Of a DNA stretch of 64,000 nt, positions 10,943 to 22,477 are shown one piece after another; the first letter of the stretch is position 1; the number at the start of each line of letters is the position of its first letter. The DNA is from Prillingera fragicola (lineage: Eukaryota; Basidiomycota; Tremellomycetes; Trichosporonales; Trichosporonaceae). The translations under genes and the position numbers were made by a program. The DNA is taken from assembly GCA_002335605.1 (NCBI GenBank), contig BEDY01000004.1:1426001-1490000 (forward strand), given 5' to 3'. Below the pieces are notes generated by a model. The model saw nothing but the letters and a program-made list of their open reading frames with translations, made no database searches and was not told the DNA's origin.

Positions 10943-13754
10943 ATGAACGTCGACCTCAAGCGGGTGCGCGACGGCTCGATAGACAGCGCACCATCGTCGT
11001 CCAAACGGCGAGCGCTGGGTGGTGGCGCCTCTCCATCGCCTGTAGTTGACGCAGACGACGATGGAGTCGAGGACTGGATGCGCGTTGTCGAGGCAAAGCG
11101 CAAGGAGGCCATCTTCCGCCAGATGCTCGACTACCGCCGGTCGTATGAACGAGAGCAGCTGCGCGTCAACGAGTTGGAACGCCAGCGCCGGGCACTCGAA
11201 GCCAATCTGCGTGGCGTGGAAGCATGCTGGGCGCAGGTTCGTGCTTTAAAACGCTGCGCGCGCCTGTGCAGCTGTGCAAAAAGTACCGGGAATGTTTTGC
11301 TGACTCTCTGCAGCTGGTGACATCTGTTCGAGATCGGGCAGGACGGCCGGACGATGTGCCAGAAGCCGACTTGTTAGATTGTGCGTTCCCTCCGGACCTT
11401 GCTTGCTCGACCAGCGTTGACCCCACTGCAGCTCACACCATTGGCTCAAAGTCTCAATCAGAAGTGGACGGTGCTCTTCAATCGCGACTATCAGCAACAA
11501 TACGACTCGTAGCACAGTTGACAGGTGACTCGCCAGCGAACAGCGACCGGGACTTGCACCGTCGCATTGAGCAGTTCCAATCAGAGGTGCGATTTTGACA
11601 AGTTGAGTTGGCACGCTGACGTTACACAGGCCAGTGCACTACGAGTCAGCTCAACTCAACTGCAGGCGCAGATTGATGAGCTTCGCCAGTCACGAGATGC
11701 CCTTCAACATGACCTTCAGCGCGCCGAGAAAAAGCTGGACCGCCAGCGCATGACCTTTGACAAGGAGCGGGAAGAGTGGCGCTCAACGCGCGAAGAGTCT
11801 GCGGTGACCTCTAAGCCAGTTGCCAACGGGTCCGGACACTCAACCCCGAATGCAAGTGCTTCGGAGCAAGAGGTCAAACCACCAGTGCTTCCTCCAGCTG
11901 AACCCTTTATTTCACCCGAGGCTGCACAACAGTCGGCGGAGCTAGAGCATTTGGCTCAATCGCGTCTGCAGCAGCTGGAAGCACTGCAAGCCGAGACCGC
12001 AGGACTTCATCAAGAATTAGACAAGCTCAAGCTCTCGGCACACCATCCATCAGAACTGGCATTGCGGGACTCCCCATTCTTCCAAGTCTACCTGCAGCAA
12101 CTGGCTGCCCATGCCAGCCGAGCGGATGCCCTGCAAGGGCGGTTCGAAATGGCAGAGCAGAAGCTGGATCAACTGAGGGATAGCAATTTAGAATTCCGGG
12201 AAGCCGTTCTGGTGAGTGAGCAATCAGCGGATCCAACTGACCATCACAGGCAGAGGCTCGCACCGAGGTCGAAGCTTTACGACAGCAGATGAGCAAGAAG
12301 GACATTGACCTGGCACGCCTTCGTGGGCAACGCGACGAGATGAATGCCGAGCTACTGGAGCGACGGGCACGCGAGACTGAAAAATCACGTGTAACAGAGG
12401 GGCTCGAGACGTTATGTAGCGCCAGGCAGGAGCGAATCGCCCTCCTCTCATCCGAGGTCCGTCGTCTCAAGGGCAAACTCGCAGCCCGTGACGGTGCCGA
12501 GGGTTACCTTGCCTTTCTGAAAGGCGATGGAGGAATTGATGGCGACTACGTCAAGGACTTGCAAGATCGCCTGGCATCGGCCACAGACCAGGTTCAGGCC
12601 CTCAAGGCGCAAGGCGAGGCCTTTGCTGCAGGCGACGAAGCTGCGGCGGCGGCTGAAACCGCGACTCGGGCTGAACTCGAAGCAGCCCGCCGGAAGTTGG
12701 CCAAGTTTGAACGCGTTCTCGGCGACAACCCGGATCTCGCAGACGACGTGCGGTACCTCACGGACAAGTTGCGAACTGAGTCCGAGTCGAAAGCAAAGCT
12801 TGAGCTGCAGGTGTCAGAAGCCGAGGCAGAGACAAACGCCCTGTACACCGAGATTGAGGGTCTGTCCACCCAATGGGAGCGTCTGGAGAAAACTCTGCAG
12901 AGCAAAGTCTTTGAACTCAAGGACGGCGAACTCAGGATCTCGCGACTCAGCACCGAAAAGGCCAAGGCGGACAACAAGTACTTCCAAGCCATGCGGCTGA
13001 AGGAGGCCGTTGAGGCAGAGTGCAAGACGGCCCAGCGCAGCACCGAGAAGCAGCAAAAGCTCTTGGAGCGCGCGCACGAGGTGGAGCATTCTTTAACGAT
13101 GCAAGTTGTGAGTACAGTGCCTCATCCGTGTGGCACGATATTGACACGCTGCAGGGTCAGCAAGACAAGGGCCTCACGGCAGCCAAGAACATCAACTTGG
13201 ACTTGCAATCTCAGCTGGCAACAACAACCTCGGAGAAGCGTCAGCTCGAATTGCGTTTGCAGCAAAGCCAAGCCGCGCTCGCCGAAGCCCAGCAGCTTGC
13301 CCACACGCGAGCGAGCGAAGCTGCGTCCAACAAGGCCGCCCGTGTCAAATTGCAAGAGGAACTGGATACTGCGCAGCGCAGCGCCAAGAAGCTTCGTGAG
13401 CGCCAAGAAGCTTTGACCTCGGCCAGCGCTGCGACCAATGTCTCTGAGAGCGAGCTCCAGACCCGTGCCGAACGTGAAAAATTGCTTGTGAGTCTAGTAA
13501 TGAGCGTGCTAGTGATGGGTGGTCTAACCGCTGCAGAAAATCCTCCGTTGCTCTTGCTGCGAGATCAACTTTAAACAGCAAGTCATCACCAAGTGCATGC
13601 ACACGTTCTGCAAGGAGTAAGTGGTCTGATTACACAGGGCTTGTCTAACGTTACCAGGTGTTTGGACTCTCGTATTGCTTCTAGGCAGCGCAAGTGCCCG
13701 GCTTGTGGCCTGGCGTTTGCAAAGGAAGACTGCCAGACGCTGTTCTGGCAGTAG
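10943..13754 (+). CDS. BRE1: BRE1 E3 ubiquitin ligase for histone H2B
   Basis: RING-type E3 ligase of about 800 residues that, with Rad6, monoubiquitylates histone H2B in the nucleus and is a prerequisite for H3K4 and H3K79 methylation. The start at 10943 (MNVDLKRVRDG) gives a Lys/Arg nuclear-type N-terminus (SSSKRR). Most of the protein is coiled coil. The last three exons build a C3HC4 RING: LRCSCCEINFKQQVITKCMH, then TFCKECLDSRIASRQRKCPA, ending CQTLFWQ. The RING tail with CLDSRI..RQRKCP..G.AF is characteristic of Bre1/RNF20. Introns are short (near 11240-11315, 11590-11630, 12215-12250, 13110-13155, 13495-13535 and 13619-13658). The SWD1 subunit of the downstream methyltransferase complex lies about 18 kb away. 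Confidence 0.93.
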
Positions 13755-15258: not shown

Positions 15259-17610
15259 ATGCCTATGTCGAGGCTGTCCGCCCACAGCTCGGGCGCCAAC
15301 ACGCCTGGCATGTCGTCGTCACGGTCCAACTCTCGCCCAGTCTCCAGACCCGGTTCGCCCACGCACCCGGACCCACTCAACGACTACTTTGGACACGTCC
15401 AGCAGTCATCTGCTGCATCCTCGCCTCAGCGTAACGCCTTTACCCCAAACTCTGATACCATGTCGCCGTCAGTGGCCGGCTCGTTTGGCTCGTACATCAA
15501 TGGCTCGACCGCGGGCCTGCCCTTTGGCGCGTCTGCATCGACTGCACCAGTCGAGATTGTGCTGGACAATGACCACCTCGTGCTTCGCGGCCAGGGTGGC
15601 GACATGAACCCGGCTTATCTTTCTGGCCACGTCAGCATCTGGCTCGTCGAACCCATGAATATCAAGGACATTACCTTGAATCTGAGTGGCAAGGCCAAAG
15701 TACATTACTCGGACGGATCCAAGTGGGTTTGCTTATCAACCACGAGTGACGACGCACACTAATGTCTCAGCCACAACTACACCCACAACATTCTGTCGCA
15801 TGACTGGTCGTTCCTTGAGGGCAACAAGCGTGCACACACACTCAAGGCTGGCCAGCACAACTTTCCCTTCACATACACGCTCGATGGCAAGCTGCCGTCA
15901 AGCATTACCACCGCCACGGGCGATGGCATTATCCAGTACAAGCTGCGCGCGACTGTCATTCGCTCTGGCTTTGGATTCAACCTGCACGCTACTCGTCCCT
16001 TTACGCTGAACCGCACGTTTACGCCAGAGGCCCTGGAGTTCAACCAGACGCTCGAGATTGAGAACACATGGCCTGGCAAGATCATGTACTCGATTACGCT
16101 GCCTTTCAAGGCCTACGCCGCAGGTGACTCGATTCCAGTGATCCTCAAATTCATGCCAATCGCCAAAGGTGTGCGCGTCTTGAGCGTTTCCTCTGTAATC
16201 AAAGAGTACTCGCTAGTACACACACGCAGCTCGTCCCACCCAGAGACTCGCGTTGCCGTGGCTGTCAAGCACGAGATTCGTGACGGCGTGTGCATGCTGG
16301 TGGATCAAGAGGTCAGCCGCCCACCAACGCACTGGAGTGGCTCTCGCAACTGGCAATGCACATCCGAGGCGAGTCCCTGCGCCACGGGTCCTCGCCCGTC
16401 AAGCGAATCGGCCACGGCCGAGGACGCCATTTCTGGCGACGATGAGCTCAGCACCAACTTGACTATTCCTATTCCCCCTTGGACGACCCCATCACACTCA
16501 GTCAAGCCAGTGTTTGTCACCCACAAGATCAAGTGGTCTTGCTCCATCTCCAACCCGGACGGCCACATTAGTGAGCTCCGCTGTGCACTTCCAGTTTGCA
16601 TTCTCGACAATTCTCTCCTCGACGAAGCCCGTGCGGCTGGCGCCCCTACACGCTCTCTACTCACGGGTGGCACAGCGGAAGCAACCCAAGTTGTGGACTT
16701 GCCCAGCTACCGCAACCACGTCTACGACCGCGTCGCCGTCCCTGATCCTGCGACATCATCAAACTTTACCCGTTCGCGCAACTCTACTCCCCACCACTCG
16801 CCCAACCACACTCCTCCCCACAGCCGACCAGGCAGTCCAACTCGCCGCCAAGCTCATGACGATATTCCGCCTCGGCGAGAGCTCACTGAACAGGAATCGT
16901 CACTTCTTCGTTCCCTTGGCTCCTTCTCCAACTTGTCATCTCGCGGTACCTCCGCGTCTGGCAATGCGACGCCCCCGGGTGCCTCTGGATCCAACTCACG
17001 ACTGGGATCACGACCATCCTCGCGGGCAGGGTCTCGTGCCGGCTCACGTGCGGGATCAAGGGCATCCTCACCTGAGCGTGGCGAGGGTGAAGAGCGTACC
17101 CACCCAGAGCGCCGGTCTTCTGGATTGTCGCACCTATTCCACTTGCCAATGAAGCCTCTATCGGCTTTGGGGTCGACAACCAAATCGCCCATCTTGCGAA
17201 ATGGTTCGGCATCCAACTCCAACTCTCCTGTGCTGGGGGCGCAGGCGAGCTCTCTGTCGCGCAGCTCGCTCTCCTATGTCAACCTTCCATCACCTGCGGC
17301 TGAACGAGCATCCAGCGTTAGCTTTGCAGCCTCTGCACTCCAGAAGCCGCAGCGTCGCAGTTCGGGAGCGCGGTTCCAGGTCGACACAGATGACGAGGAT
17401 CAAGACAACCCGCTGTCTCGAGTCCCAAGCTACACGGACGAAGCTGCCACCTTGTTTGTCTCGCCGCTCGACCCAGCATTACCGACGTACGATGTTAGCG
17501 AGCTGCAGGAGCGAGCTCGTAGCCATACAGACTTGGAACAGCTTCGTGCCGAAGTGTCCGAGATCCGAATGACCCGCGCTCATAGCGAGCAGGGGCCGCC
17601 ACCAGCCTAA
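15259..17610 (+). CDS. Alpha-arrestin (ART family adaptor)
   Basis: Arrestin-fold adaptor of about 765 residues; such proteins recruit Rsp5/Nedd4 ubiquitin ligases to plasma-membrane transporters for endocytosis. After a Ser/Pro-rich leader (about 100 residues), the arrestin-N domain begins at VEIVLDNDHLVLRG with LSGHVSIWLVEP. One 48-nt intron at 15723-15770 interrupts it before NYTHNILSHDWSFLEG. The arrestin-C domain includes FQLPFKAY-type strands (ITLPFKAYAAGDSIPVILKF). Two L-P-x-Y sequences (LPSY and LPTY), accepted variants of PY motifs, suggest WW-domain binding. The C-terminal half is disordered and has a short tandem SRAGS repeat near 17020-17070. The first of two closely spaced ATGs (MPM) was chosen. 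Confidence 0.88.
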
Positions 17611-18671: not shown

Positions 18672-20651
18672 ATGTACGCTTCTCTCGTCCTCCTCCTTCC
18701 TCTCCTGGCTAGTGTGAACGCCGCTGGCGGCGACCACTACGTCCCTCACCGCAGCAAGTCTGGTAACTTGAAGCGCAACGCAAACCCTCTGGGCGGCGAC
18801 CACTACGTTCCTCACAGGAGCAAGTTGCGCCAGCGTGACGCTCTCGGTGGCGACCACTACGTTCCTCACCGCAAGCAGGGTTCGTCCCGCCGCAGCGAGG
18901 TCGTCGAGCTTGACGAGCGTGGCCTCCCGATTACCGCAACCACGACTGTTGTTGTTCCTATGACGGTCACCGAGACTGTTTGGGTGACTGAGACACCTGC
19001 CCCGGCTCCCACATCCGACTCTTCGAGCATCCCCCCCTCCGAATCTGTCGCGTCGTCCTCCGCGGTGGAGCCTACCACCACGGCTCAGCCTTCCAGCCCC
19101 TCTGAGGTCATCAGGCCACCTGTCTCGTCCGGGACTGAGGAGCCGTCAGCGTCTGAGACTCTGGAGCCCTCAGTTTCCGAGTCCGTTTCACCTACCGGAT
19201 CTGAAACTGTCGAGCCTACGCCTACTACTAGTGGCGAGCCCGATGTTGAGGCCACTGCTCCCGCTGAGCCCACGATTACCGCCGACCCAACCTCGACCCA
19301 CCACGGCCATGGTCACCACTCGTCTTCGGATGACTGGCACCACTCGTCTTCTGGCTCGTGGGGTCACCACACGTCGTCGAGTGACAGCGAGAGTCTCACC
19401 GAGTCCGACTACTTTTCTTCCACCGCCCTTCCCGAGGTATCCGAGTCGGCTTCGCCCACCACCTCGTCGCAATCGGTAAAGCCCACTGCATCGTCGAAGC
19501 CCCCCGCGCATGGAAAGAGGATGATGAACGGCTACTTTGCCGACTGGTCGACTGACACCCTGCCCCCAGAGGAGGTTGACTGGTCGCGCTTTGACTCCGT
19601 TGACTTTGCCTTTGCCGAGCCCAGGTCTGACGGTAGTCTGGCGTTCACCCAGGACAGCAGCGAAGATCTCCTTCACCGTCTGACCGACTCGGCTCACGCC
19701 TCTGGCAAGCAGGTCAAGCTCTCTGTTGGAGGCTGGACTGGTTCCAAGCACTTCTCCAACATTGTTGCCACCGAGGACGGCCGCACCAACTTTGTTTCCA
19801 ACCTTGTCGACGCCGTCAACGAGTACAAGCTTGACGGTATCGACCTCGACTGGGAGTACCCCGGAGCTGCCGGTGCCAGTGGCAATGCCATCAACCCCGA
19901 CGACTCTGCCAACTACCTCGTCTTCCTTCACCAGCTGCGCGCTGCCATGCCCGACAAGCTCATTACCGCTGCTACTCAGGTGTGGCCCTTCTACGGCAGC
20001 AACGGTCAGCCTATGGACGACGTCTCCGAGTTTGGTGAGCTCCTTGACTGGATCCTCATCATGAACTACGACATCTGGGGCTCGTCCAGCGTCCCCGGTC
20101 CCAATGCCCCTCTCAACGACGGCTGCAAGGACTCGACTCAGCCGACTGCCAACGCCTACGCCGCTGTCGCCTCGTGGACTGCCGCTGGCTTCCCCGCCGA
20201 CAAGATTACCCTCGGTGTCCCCGCCTATGGCTACCTCCAGATGTCTTCGGCCAGCCAACTCTTTGGCCGCTCGTGGCCGCAGCCGCCCCACAAGCGCGCC
20301 AACTCTGCCCGCCAGTCTCTCACTGTCACCAACGACTCTGGCGGCTCTAGCGACGGCCAGGTCATGTTCGACTCGATGATTGCCCAGGGTGCTCTTGCTC
20401 TTGTCAACGGCGAGTACGTCGGTGCCGGTGGCTTTACCCGCCACTGGGACGAGTGTTCGTCAACCCCCTGGCTCAAGTCTGAGGCCTCGGGTCAGATCAT
20501 CACCTACGACGACCCCCAGAGCATGAACCTTAAGGGACAGTTTGCTGCCCAGTCTGGCATTCTCGGCTGCTCCATCTTCTCGATGGACGGTGACTATGTC
20601 AACGGTGGCTGGCCCCTCACCGATGCCGTGCGCTCGGGCATGGGTATCTAG
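18672..20651 (+). CDS. Secreted GH18 chitinase with Kex2-type peptide repeats
   Basis: Intronless gene for a 659-residue secreted protein. Residues 1-18 are a signal peptide (MYASLVLLLPLLASVNAA). Three identical 9-residue units, GGDHYVPHR, follow at 19-27, 41-49 and 59-67, separated by basic sites (KR at 34-35, R-Q-R at 53-55, RR at 73-74) that fit Kex2 furin-like processing. Residues of about 90-280 are a Ser/Thr/Pro-rich, His-rich linker likely to be O-glycosylated. A further KR at 282-283 sits directly before the glycoside hydrolase family 18 barrel. That barrel has KLSVGGW and the catalytic signature DGIDLDWEY (acid/base Glu at 395), plus MNYD. It should cleave chitin or related beta-1,4-GlcNAc polymers in the wall. 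There is no chitin-binding module or GPI tail. The codon use (C-ending) suggests high expression. Confidence 0.92.
   Translation: MYASLVLLLPLLASVNAAGGDHYVPHRSKSGNLKRNANPLGGDHYVPHRSKLRQRDALGGDHYVPHRKQGSSRRSEVVELDERGLPITATTTVVVPMTVTETVWVTETPAPAPTSDSSSIPPSESVASSSAVEPTTTAQPSSPSEVIRPPVSSGTEEPSASETLEPSVSESVSPTGSETVEPTPTTSGEPDVEATAPAEPTITADPTSTHHGHGHHSSSDDWHHSSSGSWGHHTSSSDSESLTESDYFSSTALPEVSESASPTTSSQSVKPTASSKPPAHGKRMMNGYFADWSTDTLPPEEVDWSRFDSVDFAFAEPRSDGSLAFTQDSSEDLLHRLTDSAHASGKQVKLSVGGWTGSKHFSNIVATEDGRTNFVSNLVDAVNEYKLDGIDLDWEYPGAAGASGNAINPDDSANYLVFLHQLRAAMPDKLITAATQVWPFYGSNGQPMDDVSEFGELLDWILIMNYDIWGSSSVPGPNAPLNDGCKDSTQPTANAYAAVASWTAAGFPADKITLGVPAYGYLQMSSASQLFGRSWPQPPHKRANSARQSLTVTNDSGGSSDGQVMFDSMIAQGALALVNGEYVGAGGFTRHWDECSSTPWLKSEASGQIITYDDPQSMNLKGQFAAQSGILGCSIFSMDGDYVNGGWPLTDAVRSGMGI
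18726..18872 (+). repeat. Three in-frame 27-bp peptide repeats in chitinase pro-region
   Basis: The units at 18726-18752, 18792-18818 and 18846-18872 each encode GGDHYVPHR. The DNA differs only at third positions, so the peptide is conserved more strictly than the bases. The spacers (13 and 9 residues) contain the dibasic sites. Confidence 0.9.
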
Positions 20652-20999: not shown

Positions 21000-21738
21000 T
21001 TAAGCGTCGATGTTCATTCCCATGGCACCGCCCTCGGTGGGGATGAGCCTGCTCTCGCGCTTCTTCTTGCTGGCCGCTCCGATCTGCTGCTCCGCCATGA
21101 CACGGCGCTTGGCGGCACGAACACGAATCTTGTCGAGCTGCTCGACCTTGCCCTCGAGACCGCCCGGGGCGACCTTGCGGGGCTGGACGAGTTCGATGTG
21201 CTTCTCGACGTTGAGAGCAGCCTCGCGGCGGTTGCGTGCGGGGTTGCCAGCCATGCTGCGGGGGGGTTAGTAGTTGTGCATATGTGGACGGCATCCGCAA
21301 CTGACCGGTTCTTCCAGAAAGCAGTCTCGCGCTTGGTGCGAATCTCCTGGACACGCTTCATGGCCTGGAGAGTCGAAGCAACAAGCTCGCGGTCGTAGCG
21401 GACGGGGACGTTGCGGCGCTTCTCAAACTCGTAGGTAGAGTCCTGTAGGTGGTTAGTCTCGTGGTCACAAGACCCAATTCTCCTGAGGGCGCTGTCCGCC
21501 GAGCATCCAAGCTCTGCCGCAACCGCTGCCACTGCAAACTCACGATAACCATCTCCTTTCCGTTGGCACGACGGAACGCCTTGGTCCAGCGGACCTTGCG
21601 AGGGTTGCGCTTCATCTTAAAGTTCTTGTGGCACTTGGACGAGCAGAAACGAAAGCACTTTGCGTCGTTACGGACGAACATGGTGCCGTGGCCGGGGTAG
21701 ACGGTGACGGAGCAAAAGTAGCAGGGCTCGAGCCTCAT
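21000..21738 (-). CDS. RLP24: Ribosome biogenesis protein Rlp24
   Basis: L24e-like protein of about 190 residues from three exons. It begins [19 protein letters not shown], the zinc-binding L24e fold with C-x2-C and a later [10 protein letters not shown] pair, and continues [20 protein letters not shown]. Exon 2 holds [18 protein letters not shown] and exon 3 the long basic C-terminal extension ([19 protein letters not shown]...). That extension and the EPCYFC rather than ribosomal ECxF start mark Rlp24 rather than eL24. Rlp24 occupies the eL24 site on pre-60S particles and recruits the AAA-ATPase Drg1 for its own exchange in the cytoplasm. It is divergent from the GDP-mannose pyrophosphorylase gene. 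Confidence 0.93.
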
Positions 21739-22477
21739 TTTGAATGTGGATGGATGGGGTTAAAGAGAGGCGTGTAAAGAGGGGGTCGCTTGACGACGGC
21801 GATGTTGTACAGGATGACACCAAAGGCCTGCAGATTGCTCGAGCAGTTGGGGTGGGTGGCTAACGCAGAAGGACGATGAAATCTCGCGGGATTAATGGTG
21901 GGAAATGAAAGGCAGAAAAAACTACTGCTGTCCTCCCACGTGGCATGCGGAAGTATTCTGAACAAAGGAAGGTTTGGCAGTGATCTTGTTTAGACTTTGC
22001 TCCGGGCCATGCACCTTTCAGGGACACTGGTTTTGGCCAAAGGGGGATCGAGAAGGCCGGCGGTACAGCGGTCCAGTGGCCAGCACGCCCAGCAGCAGCA
22101 GCAGCGGCGGAAACGCCCCTTGTCCCTCGTCACCCTCGTCGCTTCAGTGGTGGCGGGCCAAACGCGCTCTCATTCAGCGCCACCTGCGCAATAAATGTCG
22201 TGTACGGGACGGGCCCTAATTACAGACCTTCAGACACGTTTCGGTTCGGGCGCGCGCCGCGGTTGTTCAGGCATTCAACGGCAGACGAGGGCGGGGCGTG
22301 TCGCGCTGTCGCCCGCAGCCACCAGCAACAATCCATCTTGCACTACCAACTCATCCTCTCTGTCGTATTTTTCTCAACAGTATCTAACACCACAAGCAGG
22401 CCCTTTGCTCCTCGAGGCCAAACGTACCCCATCTTCACCTTCTTTTCACCTTTCCCACTACCCCACACCCCTGCATC
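21739..22477. promoter_or_regulatory. Divergent promoter RLP24 / GDP-mannose pyrophosphorylase
   Basis: A 739-base interval upstream of both genes. The last 150 bases before 22478 are pyrimidine- and CA-rich, like a 5' leader. No coding frame is convincing. Confidence 0.4.

What the first reader, a model, noticed from the sequence alone, without database searches (positions are those of the whole stretch)
18672..19520. Chitinase carrying a pheromone-like, Kex2-processable peptide repeat pro-region
Directly seen: a signal peptide, then three identical GGDHYVPHR units split by basic sites (KR, R-Q-R, RR), a Ser/Thr/His linker, and another KR immediately before the GH18 barrel. Fungal secreted repeat peptides and pheromone precursors have this plan, but a chitinase catalytic domain on the same chain is unexpected. 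Inference: Golgi processing by Kex2 could release two or three short peptides and a free chitinase, linking wall remodelling to a secreted signal or metal-binding peptide (His-Tyr-His content). The repeats may instead be a chaperone-like pro-region or a wall-binding tag.
Basis: partly seen in the sequence, partly recalled or inferred. Interest (0 to 1): 0.8.

Follow-up and report, generated by a model that had tools for sequence, protein, structure and literature searches.

The report
Chitinase with pheromone-style repeat propeptide
A yeast-like fungus makes a chitin-cutting enzyme whose front end looks like the precursor of an alpha-factor-type peptide hormone, with repeated short peptides, cutting sites and trimming spacers also seen in its closest relatives, so one gene may yield both a wall enzyme and a secreted peptide.

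Summary
An intronless 659-residue ORF (18672-20651, +) has a signal-peptide-like start, three identical GGDHYVPHR copies, basic sites, a disordered Ser/Thr/Pro linker and a GH18 chitinase. The repeats are not a quirk of one genome: all 4 full-length members found of a well-supported clade (one named: Apiotrichum porosum, Trichosporonales) carry two or three copies; the 66 other homologues with a pro-region do not. New here: all six internal copies follow an Arg and a run of X-Ala/X-Pro dipeptides, the Ste13 signature of alpha-factor precursors; in two relatives trimming would give the same N-terminus that signal peptidase gives copy 1. The conserved end of the pro-region is not the KR before the barrel (3 of 70) but an LxxR site, LDER (36 of 37 with aliphatic P4). 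Kexin and a DPPIV-type protease are in the genome. Best reading: a precursor that releases short linear peptides in the Golgi plus a linker-bearing chitinase. A Coprinopsis GH128 protein that releases one Kex2 peptide is a precedent; multi-copy cores with Ste13 spacers on a chitinase I found in no paper searched. Peptide release and function remain unshown.

The parts
18672..20651 (+). whole ORF, 659 aa plus stop, intronless
18672..18722 (+). signal-peptide-like stretch, aa 1-17
   Evidence: home-made -3/-1 rule; hydrophobic by eye
18726..18752 (+). GGDHYVPHR copy 1, aa 19-27
18771..18776 (+). KR, likely Kex2 site, aa 34-35
   Evidence: KR/RR at the matching place in P0002 and P0003
18777..18788 (+). 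NA-NP, Ste13-type spacer, aa 36-39
18792..18818 (+). GGDHYVPHR copy 2, aa 41-49
18825..18836 (+). LRQR, LxxR-type Kex2 site, aa 52-55
   Evidence: motif as described in PMC8528282 (passages)
18837..18842 (+). DA, Ste13-type spacer, aa 56-57
18846..18872 (+). GGDHYVPHR copy 3, aa 59-67
18888..18893 (+). RR, likely Kex2 site, aa 73-74
18909..18920 (+). LDER, conserved LxxR site, inferred end of the pro-region, aa 80-83
18924..18986 (+). conserved block LPITATTTVVVPMTVTETVWV, aa 85-105
18987..19514 (+). Ser/Thr/Pro-rich disordered linker with His-rich part, aa 106-281
19515..19520 (+). KR before the barrel, aa 282-283, poorly conserved
   Evidence: 3 of 70
19530..20594 (+). GH18 chitinase domain, aa 287-641
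19833..19856 (+). DGIDLDWE, catalytic motif DxxDxDxE (motif recalled), aa 388-395
   Evidence: D388 D391 D393 E395 invariant in 30 rows

Best explanation
The gene encodes a composite precursor. Signal peptidase exposes copy 1. In the Golgi, kexin cuts after the Arg sites (KR, LRQR, RR and finally LDER). A Ste13-like dipeptidyl aminopeptidase then removes the X-Ala/X-Pro dipeptides, leaving short linear peptides that begin X-GG-[DS]-HY-x-PH, plus a chitinase that keeps its LPITATTT block and Ser/Thr-rich linker. The peptides leave in fixed ratio to the enzyme, probably as a self-perceived or wall-directed signal linked to chitin remodelling. Shown by sequence: repeats, sites, spacers, their recurrence in relatives, and both protease genes. 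Inferred: cutting, release and any activity of the peptides.
For: Repeats in 4 of 4 full-length clade members and in none of 66 other proteins with a pro-region (one chance 5-mer in P0070). Six of six internal copies preceded by Arg plus X-A/X-P dipeptides, 14 in all; shuffles mean 1.34, maximum 9, 0 of 20000 reach 14. In P0002 and P0003 the spacer ends at the same residue that the predicted signal cut exposes in copy 1. Core identity P0001-P0002 8.0 of 9 against 67% in GH18 and 36% in the linker. LxxR before the conserved block: P4 aliphatic 36 of 37 against 227 of 634 other Arg. Kexin P-domain at 93.5 bits with an S8-like frame beside it (S8 judged by eye); DPPIV-type protein at 317.7 bits. 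Disordered pro-region. Precedent: a Kex2 peptide from a GH128 protein detected by MS (PMC9769878 section 7).
Against: No mass-spectrometry or expression data. P0004 has only single-Arg sites at its repeats and its core has drifted (4.0 of 9); one P0002 site is a single Arg. Copies 2 and 3 in P0001 are split by R-Q-R, not KR/RR. The shuffle test used sites picked after seeing them, and two X-A/X-P dipeptides after some Arg also occur in 15 of 66 repeat-free proteins. Only four full-length sequences, one of them named. No STE2-type receptor found (no working positive control). The DPPIV-type protein could be the vacuolar kind. Spacers may only help Kex2 cut (recalled from yeast expression practice).
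Confidence: 0.6

Rival explanations
1. An expanded ordinary propeptide. Relatives in other Tremellomycetes carry a short basic, often His/Pro-rich propeptide that ends at LxxR; in this lineage it was duplicated. It helps secretion, delays activity or senses Golgi pH, and the fragments are by-products.
For: Pro-regions of 29 aa or less, often His/Arg/Pro-rich, in the repeat-free motif-bearing rows; 98 His in 973 pro-region residues over 36 rows, repeat clade included. Kex2 removes propeptides from many wall enzymes (PMC9769878 passage).
Against: Ste13 spacers that set one N-terminus, and a core conserved better than the enzyme between P0001 and P0002, are not needed for a discarded propeptide.
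Confidence: 0.28
2. A wall-binding or metal-binding tag: the repeats stay on the enzyme, or form surface fibrils like Rep1 of Ustilago, and bind wall polymer or copper/zinc through His-Tyr-His.
For: Two His and one Tyr in each core; peptides of Ustilago Rep1 form hyphal surface fibrils (PMC8528282 passage).
Against: Basic sites lie between the copies, and the conserved LDER site would cut the repeats off. P0004 keeps only one His per core. Binding was not tested.
Confidence: 0.08
3. A dikaritin-type RiPP: cores cyclised through Tyr by UstYa enzymes.
For: Tyr in each core and a Kex2 repeat plan.
Against: No UstYa (PF11807) match in the genome (no working positive control) and none in seven neighbouring frames. 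Le Marquer et al. say the Ste13 signature is absent from the cyclic-peptide precursors they name (PMC6339444 passage).
Confidence: 0.02

Closest known systems
KEX2-processed repeat proteins (KEPs) with Ste13 signature, including ascomycete alpha-pheromone precursors
   Same: signal peptide, near-identical short cores, basic cut sites, X-A/X-P spacers
   Different: here followed by a linker and a GH18 enzyme; repeats fill 4.1% of the chain; one site is R-Q-R; core unlike the alpha-factors
Coprinopsis cinerea GH128 protein 365456 (peptide pyro-QSEPKPTN)
   Same: signal peptide, Kex2-flanked short peptide, then a glycoside hydrolase; peptide seen by MS (PMC9769878 section 7)
   Different: single-copy peptide, other enzyme family; the authors do not class it as a KEP
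Cryptococcus and Kwoniella GH18 chitinases (P0007-P0036 rows with names)
   Same: GH18 57-68% identical over the aligned part, LxER site, LPITATTT block, long Ser/Thr-rich linker
   Different: pro-region of 29 aa or less, no repeats
Rhizomucor miehei chitinase (5xwf)
   Same: nearest solved GH18 by sequence, 185 bits
   Different: the match covers the catalytic domain only (query 285-641)

Membership tests
GH18 chitinase | GH18 domain over the curated cut-off | tested here: met
   176 bits, cut-off 29.6
GH18 chitinase | catalytic DxxDxDxE (recalled) | tested here: met
   DGIDLDWE at aa 388-395, key residues invariant in 30 rows
GH18 chitinase | chitin hydrolysis | not testable with these tools
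   needs an enzyme assay
KEP (Le Marquer 2019 definition) | predicted signal peptide | tested here: inconclusive
   home-made rule only
KEP (Le Marquer 2019 definition) | at least three similar fragments after cutting at KR/RR | tested here: not met
   core falls in two fragments of 18 and 39 aa (rule)
KEP (Le Marquer 2019 definition) | repeats at least 15% of protein length | tested here: not met
   4.1%
Alpha-type pheromone precursor | Ste13 spacers after Kex2 sites | tested here: met
Alpha-type pheromone precursor | MF_alpha Pfam domain | tested here: not met
   only GH18 and a sub-threshold EndoS match at E up to 1
Alpha-type pheromone precursor | STE2-type receptor in the genome | tested here: inconclusive
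   no PF02116 match, but no control rang
Dikaritin RiPP | UstYa (DUF3328) gene | tested here: inconclusive
   none in genome, but no control rang; none in seven neighbour frames

The most novel reading that the evidence does not exclude
A Trichosporonales invention in which a peptide hormone of alpha-factor style is embedded in the pro-region of a wall chitinase, so that each enzyme molecule secreted also releases two or three signal peptides that report chitin remodelling to the cell or its neighbours. Such enzyme-embedded peptides would form a class that the 15% rule of one published KEP survey filters out.
Probability: 0.33. Interest if true: 0.82.

Novelty: new variant of a known kind. Interest (0 to 1): 0.62.

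Why it matters
Basidiomycetes do not use alpha-type mating pheromones, yet alpha-style precursors occur in them with no known role (PMC6339444 and PMC9769878, passages). This case ties such a precursor to a defined wall enzyme and gives a peptide (X-GG-[DS]-HY-x-PH) that can be synthesised and tested. It also shows that a survey rule such as '15% repeats' can hide peptide precursors fused to enzymes, so there may be more to find among secreted hydrolases.

Tried and rejected
Tried without result: stand-alone precursors sharing the core. GGxHYxPH in the genome matches only this gene; looser forms were not searched. The profile search for short proteins scored 7990 candidates and gave four weak hits, E 0.017 to 1.0, all N-terminal pieces with the LPITATTT block and no repeats. 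The region search 1-106 returned only P0002; it missed P0003 and P0004, so such searches can miss relatives. A search for WGGCGG, after the Trichosporon oleaginosus peptide, gave 6 matches against 4 for the reversed control and no repeat-bearing frame.

Rejected: the KR before the barrel as the general release point (3 of 70); a folded chaperone-like pro-domain as first choice (that alignment held 30 rows, of which 13 lack most of the N-terminus or belong to other lineages, so disorder is weakly tested); a gene-cluster RiPP; an alpha-pheromone proper.

Not done: expression data, codon-level selection tests on relatives (no DNA held for them), SignalP, structure searches. Supplementary tables of the KEP surveys could not be read, so I do not know whether either lists an orthologue.

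Full report
What is there. The ORF at 18672-20651 (+) is open from ATG to stop with no intron and encodes 659 residues. It starts with a signal-peptide-like stretch (aa 1-17 by a simple rule). The predicted secreted pro-region reads AGGDHYVPHRSKSGNLKR | NANP LGGDHYVPHRSKLRQR | DA LGGDHYVPHRKQGSSRR | SEVVELDER, then GLPITATTTVVV. A linker of about 176 residues rich in Ser, Thr and Pro follows, then a GH18 domain (aa 287-641, Pfam E 2e-51) whose nearest solved relative by sequence is the Rhizomucor miehei chitinase 5xwf. The three GGDHYVPHR cores are identical in protein but differ at four nucleotide positions, all synonymous. That fits selection on the peptide, or gene conversion followed by drift. 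A five-residue word occurring three times was seen in 0 of 2000 shuffles. In the 20.2 Mb genome the pattern GGxHYxPH matches only these three places.

Recurrence of the repeats. A search of 5.8 billion proteins gave 355 matches among 7991 scored candidates; the best 120 are listed. With the query that is 121 rows. By my rule (catalytic motif found, at least 140 residues before it) 70 rows have a pro-region; the other 51 were dropped because they are short at the N-terminus or the motif rule missed them. Between residue 16 and the LPITATTT block (or residue 150), repeated words occur in P0001-P0004. Among the 66 others there is one 5-residue match, QPTST in P0070, which I take for chance. A maximum-likelihood tree of 74 GH18 domains (of the 75 best rows; one failed the length or motif rule) puts P0001-P0004 in a 13-row clade with support 100/99. 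The nine other rows of that clade (P0005, P0006, P0008, P0016, P0024, P0027, P0034, P0035, P0039) are 366-377 aa, catalytic domain only. They say nothing about the N-terminus, and because of them the tree test counts the label 'repeat' as scattered (four changes). So the full-length members found, 4 of 4, have repeats. The deepest branch is P0002, Apiotrichum porosum, order Trichosporonales. If the rooting by outgroups holds, the repeats date at least to the ancestor of this clade. P0003 and P0004 come from unnamed assemblies.

The relatives read: P0002 AGGDHYVPHK...KR | DANPNADP AGGDHYAPHR...; P0003 WGGSHYSPHR...RR | DAAPEADP WGGSHYSPHL...KR; P0004 ...EIR | SPVP AGIGGAHYAQAQK...YER | DP AGIGGAHYAQAQK. 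Mean core identity P0001-P0002 is 8.0 of 9, above the GH18 domain (67%) and linker (36%). For P0003 it is 6.5 of 9 against 67% and 35%. For P0004 it is 4.0 of 9, below GH18 (69%) and equal to the linker (44%), so that lineage has drifted and keeps mainly GG-HY.

Ste13 signature. After the Arg that precedes each of the six internal copies come X-Ala or X-Pro dipeptides: 2, 1, 4, 4, 2 and 1. Shuffling the pro-regions gave a mean total of 1.34 and a maximum of 9; 0 of 20000 reached 14, and in none did all six sites have one. The sites were picked after the fact. With any Arg allowed, two such dipeptides also follow an Arg in 15 of the 66 repeat-free proteins, so the strength lies in the match between spacer and repeat. 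In P0002 and P0003 trimming would stop at the residue that the predicted signal cut exposes in copy 1 (A-GG and W-GG): two processing routes converge on one N-terminus. In P0001 copy 1 starts with A and copies 2 and 3 with L. Le Marquer et al. describe this spacer as the mark of alpha-type pheromone precursors and report it, to their surprise, in basidiomycetes, including a Trichosporon oleaginosus protein (PMC6339444; abstract, passages and pipeline section seen). The genome has a kexin (P-domain at 93.5 bits; the neighbouring subtilase frame judged by eye) and one DPPIV-type protein with an N-terminal hydrophobic stretch as in Ste13; whether it is the Golgi or the vacuolar kind is not settled.

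Where the pro-region ends. By contrast, within two residues before the LPITATTT block 37 of 38 motif-bearing proteins have an Arg (the 38th, P0023, starts at the block). Of these, 36 of 37 have an aliphatic residue at P4 and 32 of 37 a Leu, against 227 of 634 and 74 of 634 for other Arg in the same proteins. The script preferred an Arg with aliphatic P4 where two stood side by side, which leans slightly that way. Four of the 38 rows came from the short-protein search, which selects for this block. LxxR is the extended Kex2 motif described in PMC8528282 (passages). The rows are related, so the counts are not independent, and the block may be conserved for another reason. P0004 has Tyr at P4. 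On this evidence the mature chitinase starts at GLPIT and keeps its linker.

Mechanism. I think it most likely that kexin and Ste13 release two or three linear peptides beginning X-GGDHYVPH from each chain, and that the enzyme leaves with its linker. AlphaFold2 with 30 aligned rows gives most of the barrel high confidence, with weak loops (468-490, 525-538), and puts 7-107 and 113-275 below pLDDT 50, as for a disordered precursor; few rows cover the pro-region, so this is weak evidence. What the peptides do is inference. A signal tied to wall remodelling is my first choice, because Ste13 trimming fixes the N-terminus; a discarded propeptide is the main rival. That rival gains from the sister lineages, whose pro-regions are 29 residues or less and often basic and rich in His and Pro, for example HRNLPRKPQHHPHLDER. 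The repeat pro-region may have grown out of such a piece.

Against known things. The closest precedent is the Coprinopsis cinerea GH128 protein that yields pyro-QSEPKPTN, seen by MS; its authors do not class it as a KEP because it lacks repeats (PMC9769878 section 7). They suggest a screen for Kex2 substrates with carbohydrate-active domains (passage). The present protein has the repeats and spacers, yet fails two filters of the Le Marquer survey: two KR/RR fragments with the core instead of three, and 4.1% instead of 15% repeats. I therefore call it a KEP-like variant, not a member by that definition. In Umemura's survey the words chitinase and Trichosporon do not occur in the main text held (PMC7329392). 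Searches for kex2+propeptide+chitinase+basidiomycete (3 papers), chitinase+KEX2+STE13 (4 papers), Trichosporon+Kex2+peptide+pheromone (1 paper), chitinase+Trichosporon asahii+Kex2 (0 papers), 'Kex2-processed repeat proteins' (14 papers), a broader one (128 papers, 30 listed) and Apiotrichum+chitinase (19 papers, 12 listed) showed no title or abstract start reporting a repeat-bearing chitinase. Of all these I saw parts of PMC9769878, PMC6339444, PMC7329392, PMC8528282 and PMC7761569 (passages). Supplementary tables were not readable.

Verdict. It is a new variant of a known kind, with processing well supported by sequence and function open.

Noticed in passing
window 20259-20339 (aa 530-556; KR 541-542 at 20292-20297): A dibasic pair (KR, RR or KK) lies in this variable surface loop of the GH18 domain in 27 of 30 aligned relatives, beside a low-confidence stretch 525-538. 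A Kex2 nick giving a two-chain chitinase is conceivable; loop alignment is uncertain.
   Followed up: partly
window 18909-18986: LxER followed by LPITATTTVVV..T.T.TVW is conserved well beyond the repeat clade, in Tremellomycete relatives that lack the repeats; the role of the block is unknown to me.
   Followed up: partly
P0011-P0031 (named Kwoniella and Cryptococcus relatives), N-termini: Short pro-regions rich in His, Arg and Pro, such as HRNLPRKPQHHPHLDER and PPGRHRHPRIFKDLQERGQLDER; they too might be released as peptides.
   Followed up: partly
L004 (G000:C3:782346-785759): Another weak GH18-like match (29.3 bits) sits behind a long low-complexity Ser/Thr/Gly/Asp-rich stretch with RRRGR...GER before it.
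   Followed up: no
window 15763-17610 (+), 12241-13416 (+), 21358-21759 (-): Neighbouring frames match arrestin, BRE1 and ribosomal L24e families; no sign of a biosynthetic cluster in the seven frames searched.
   Followed up: partly
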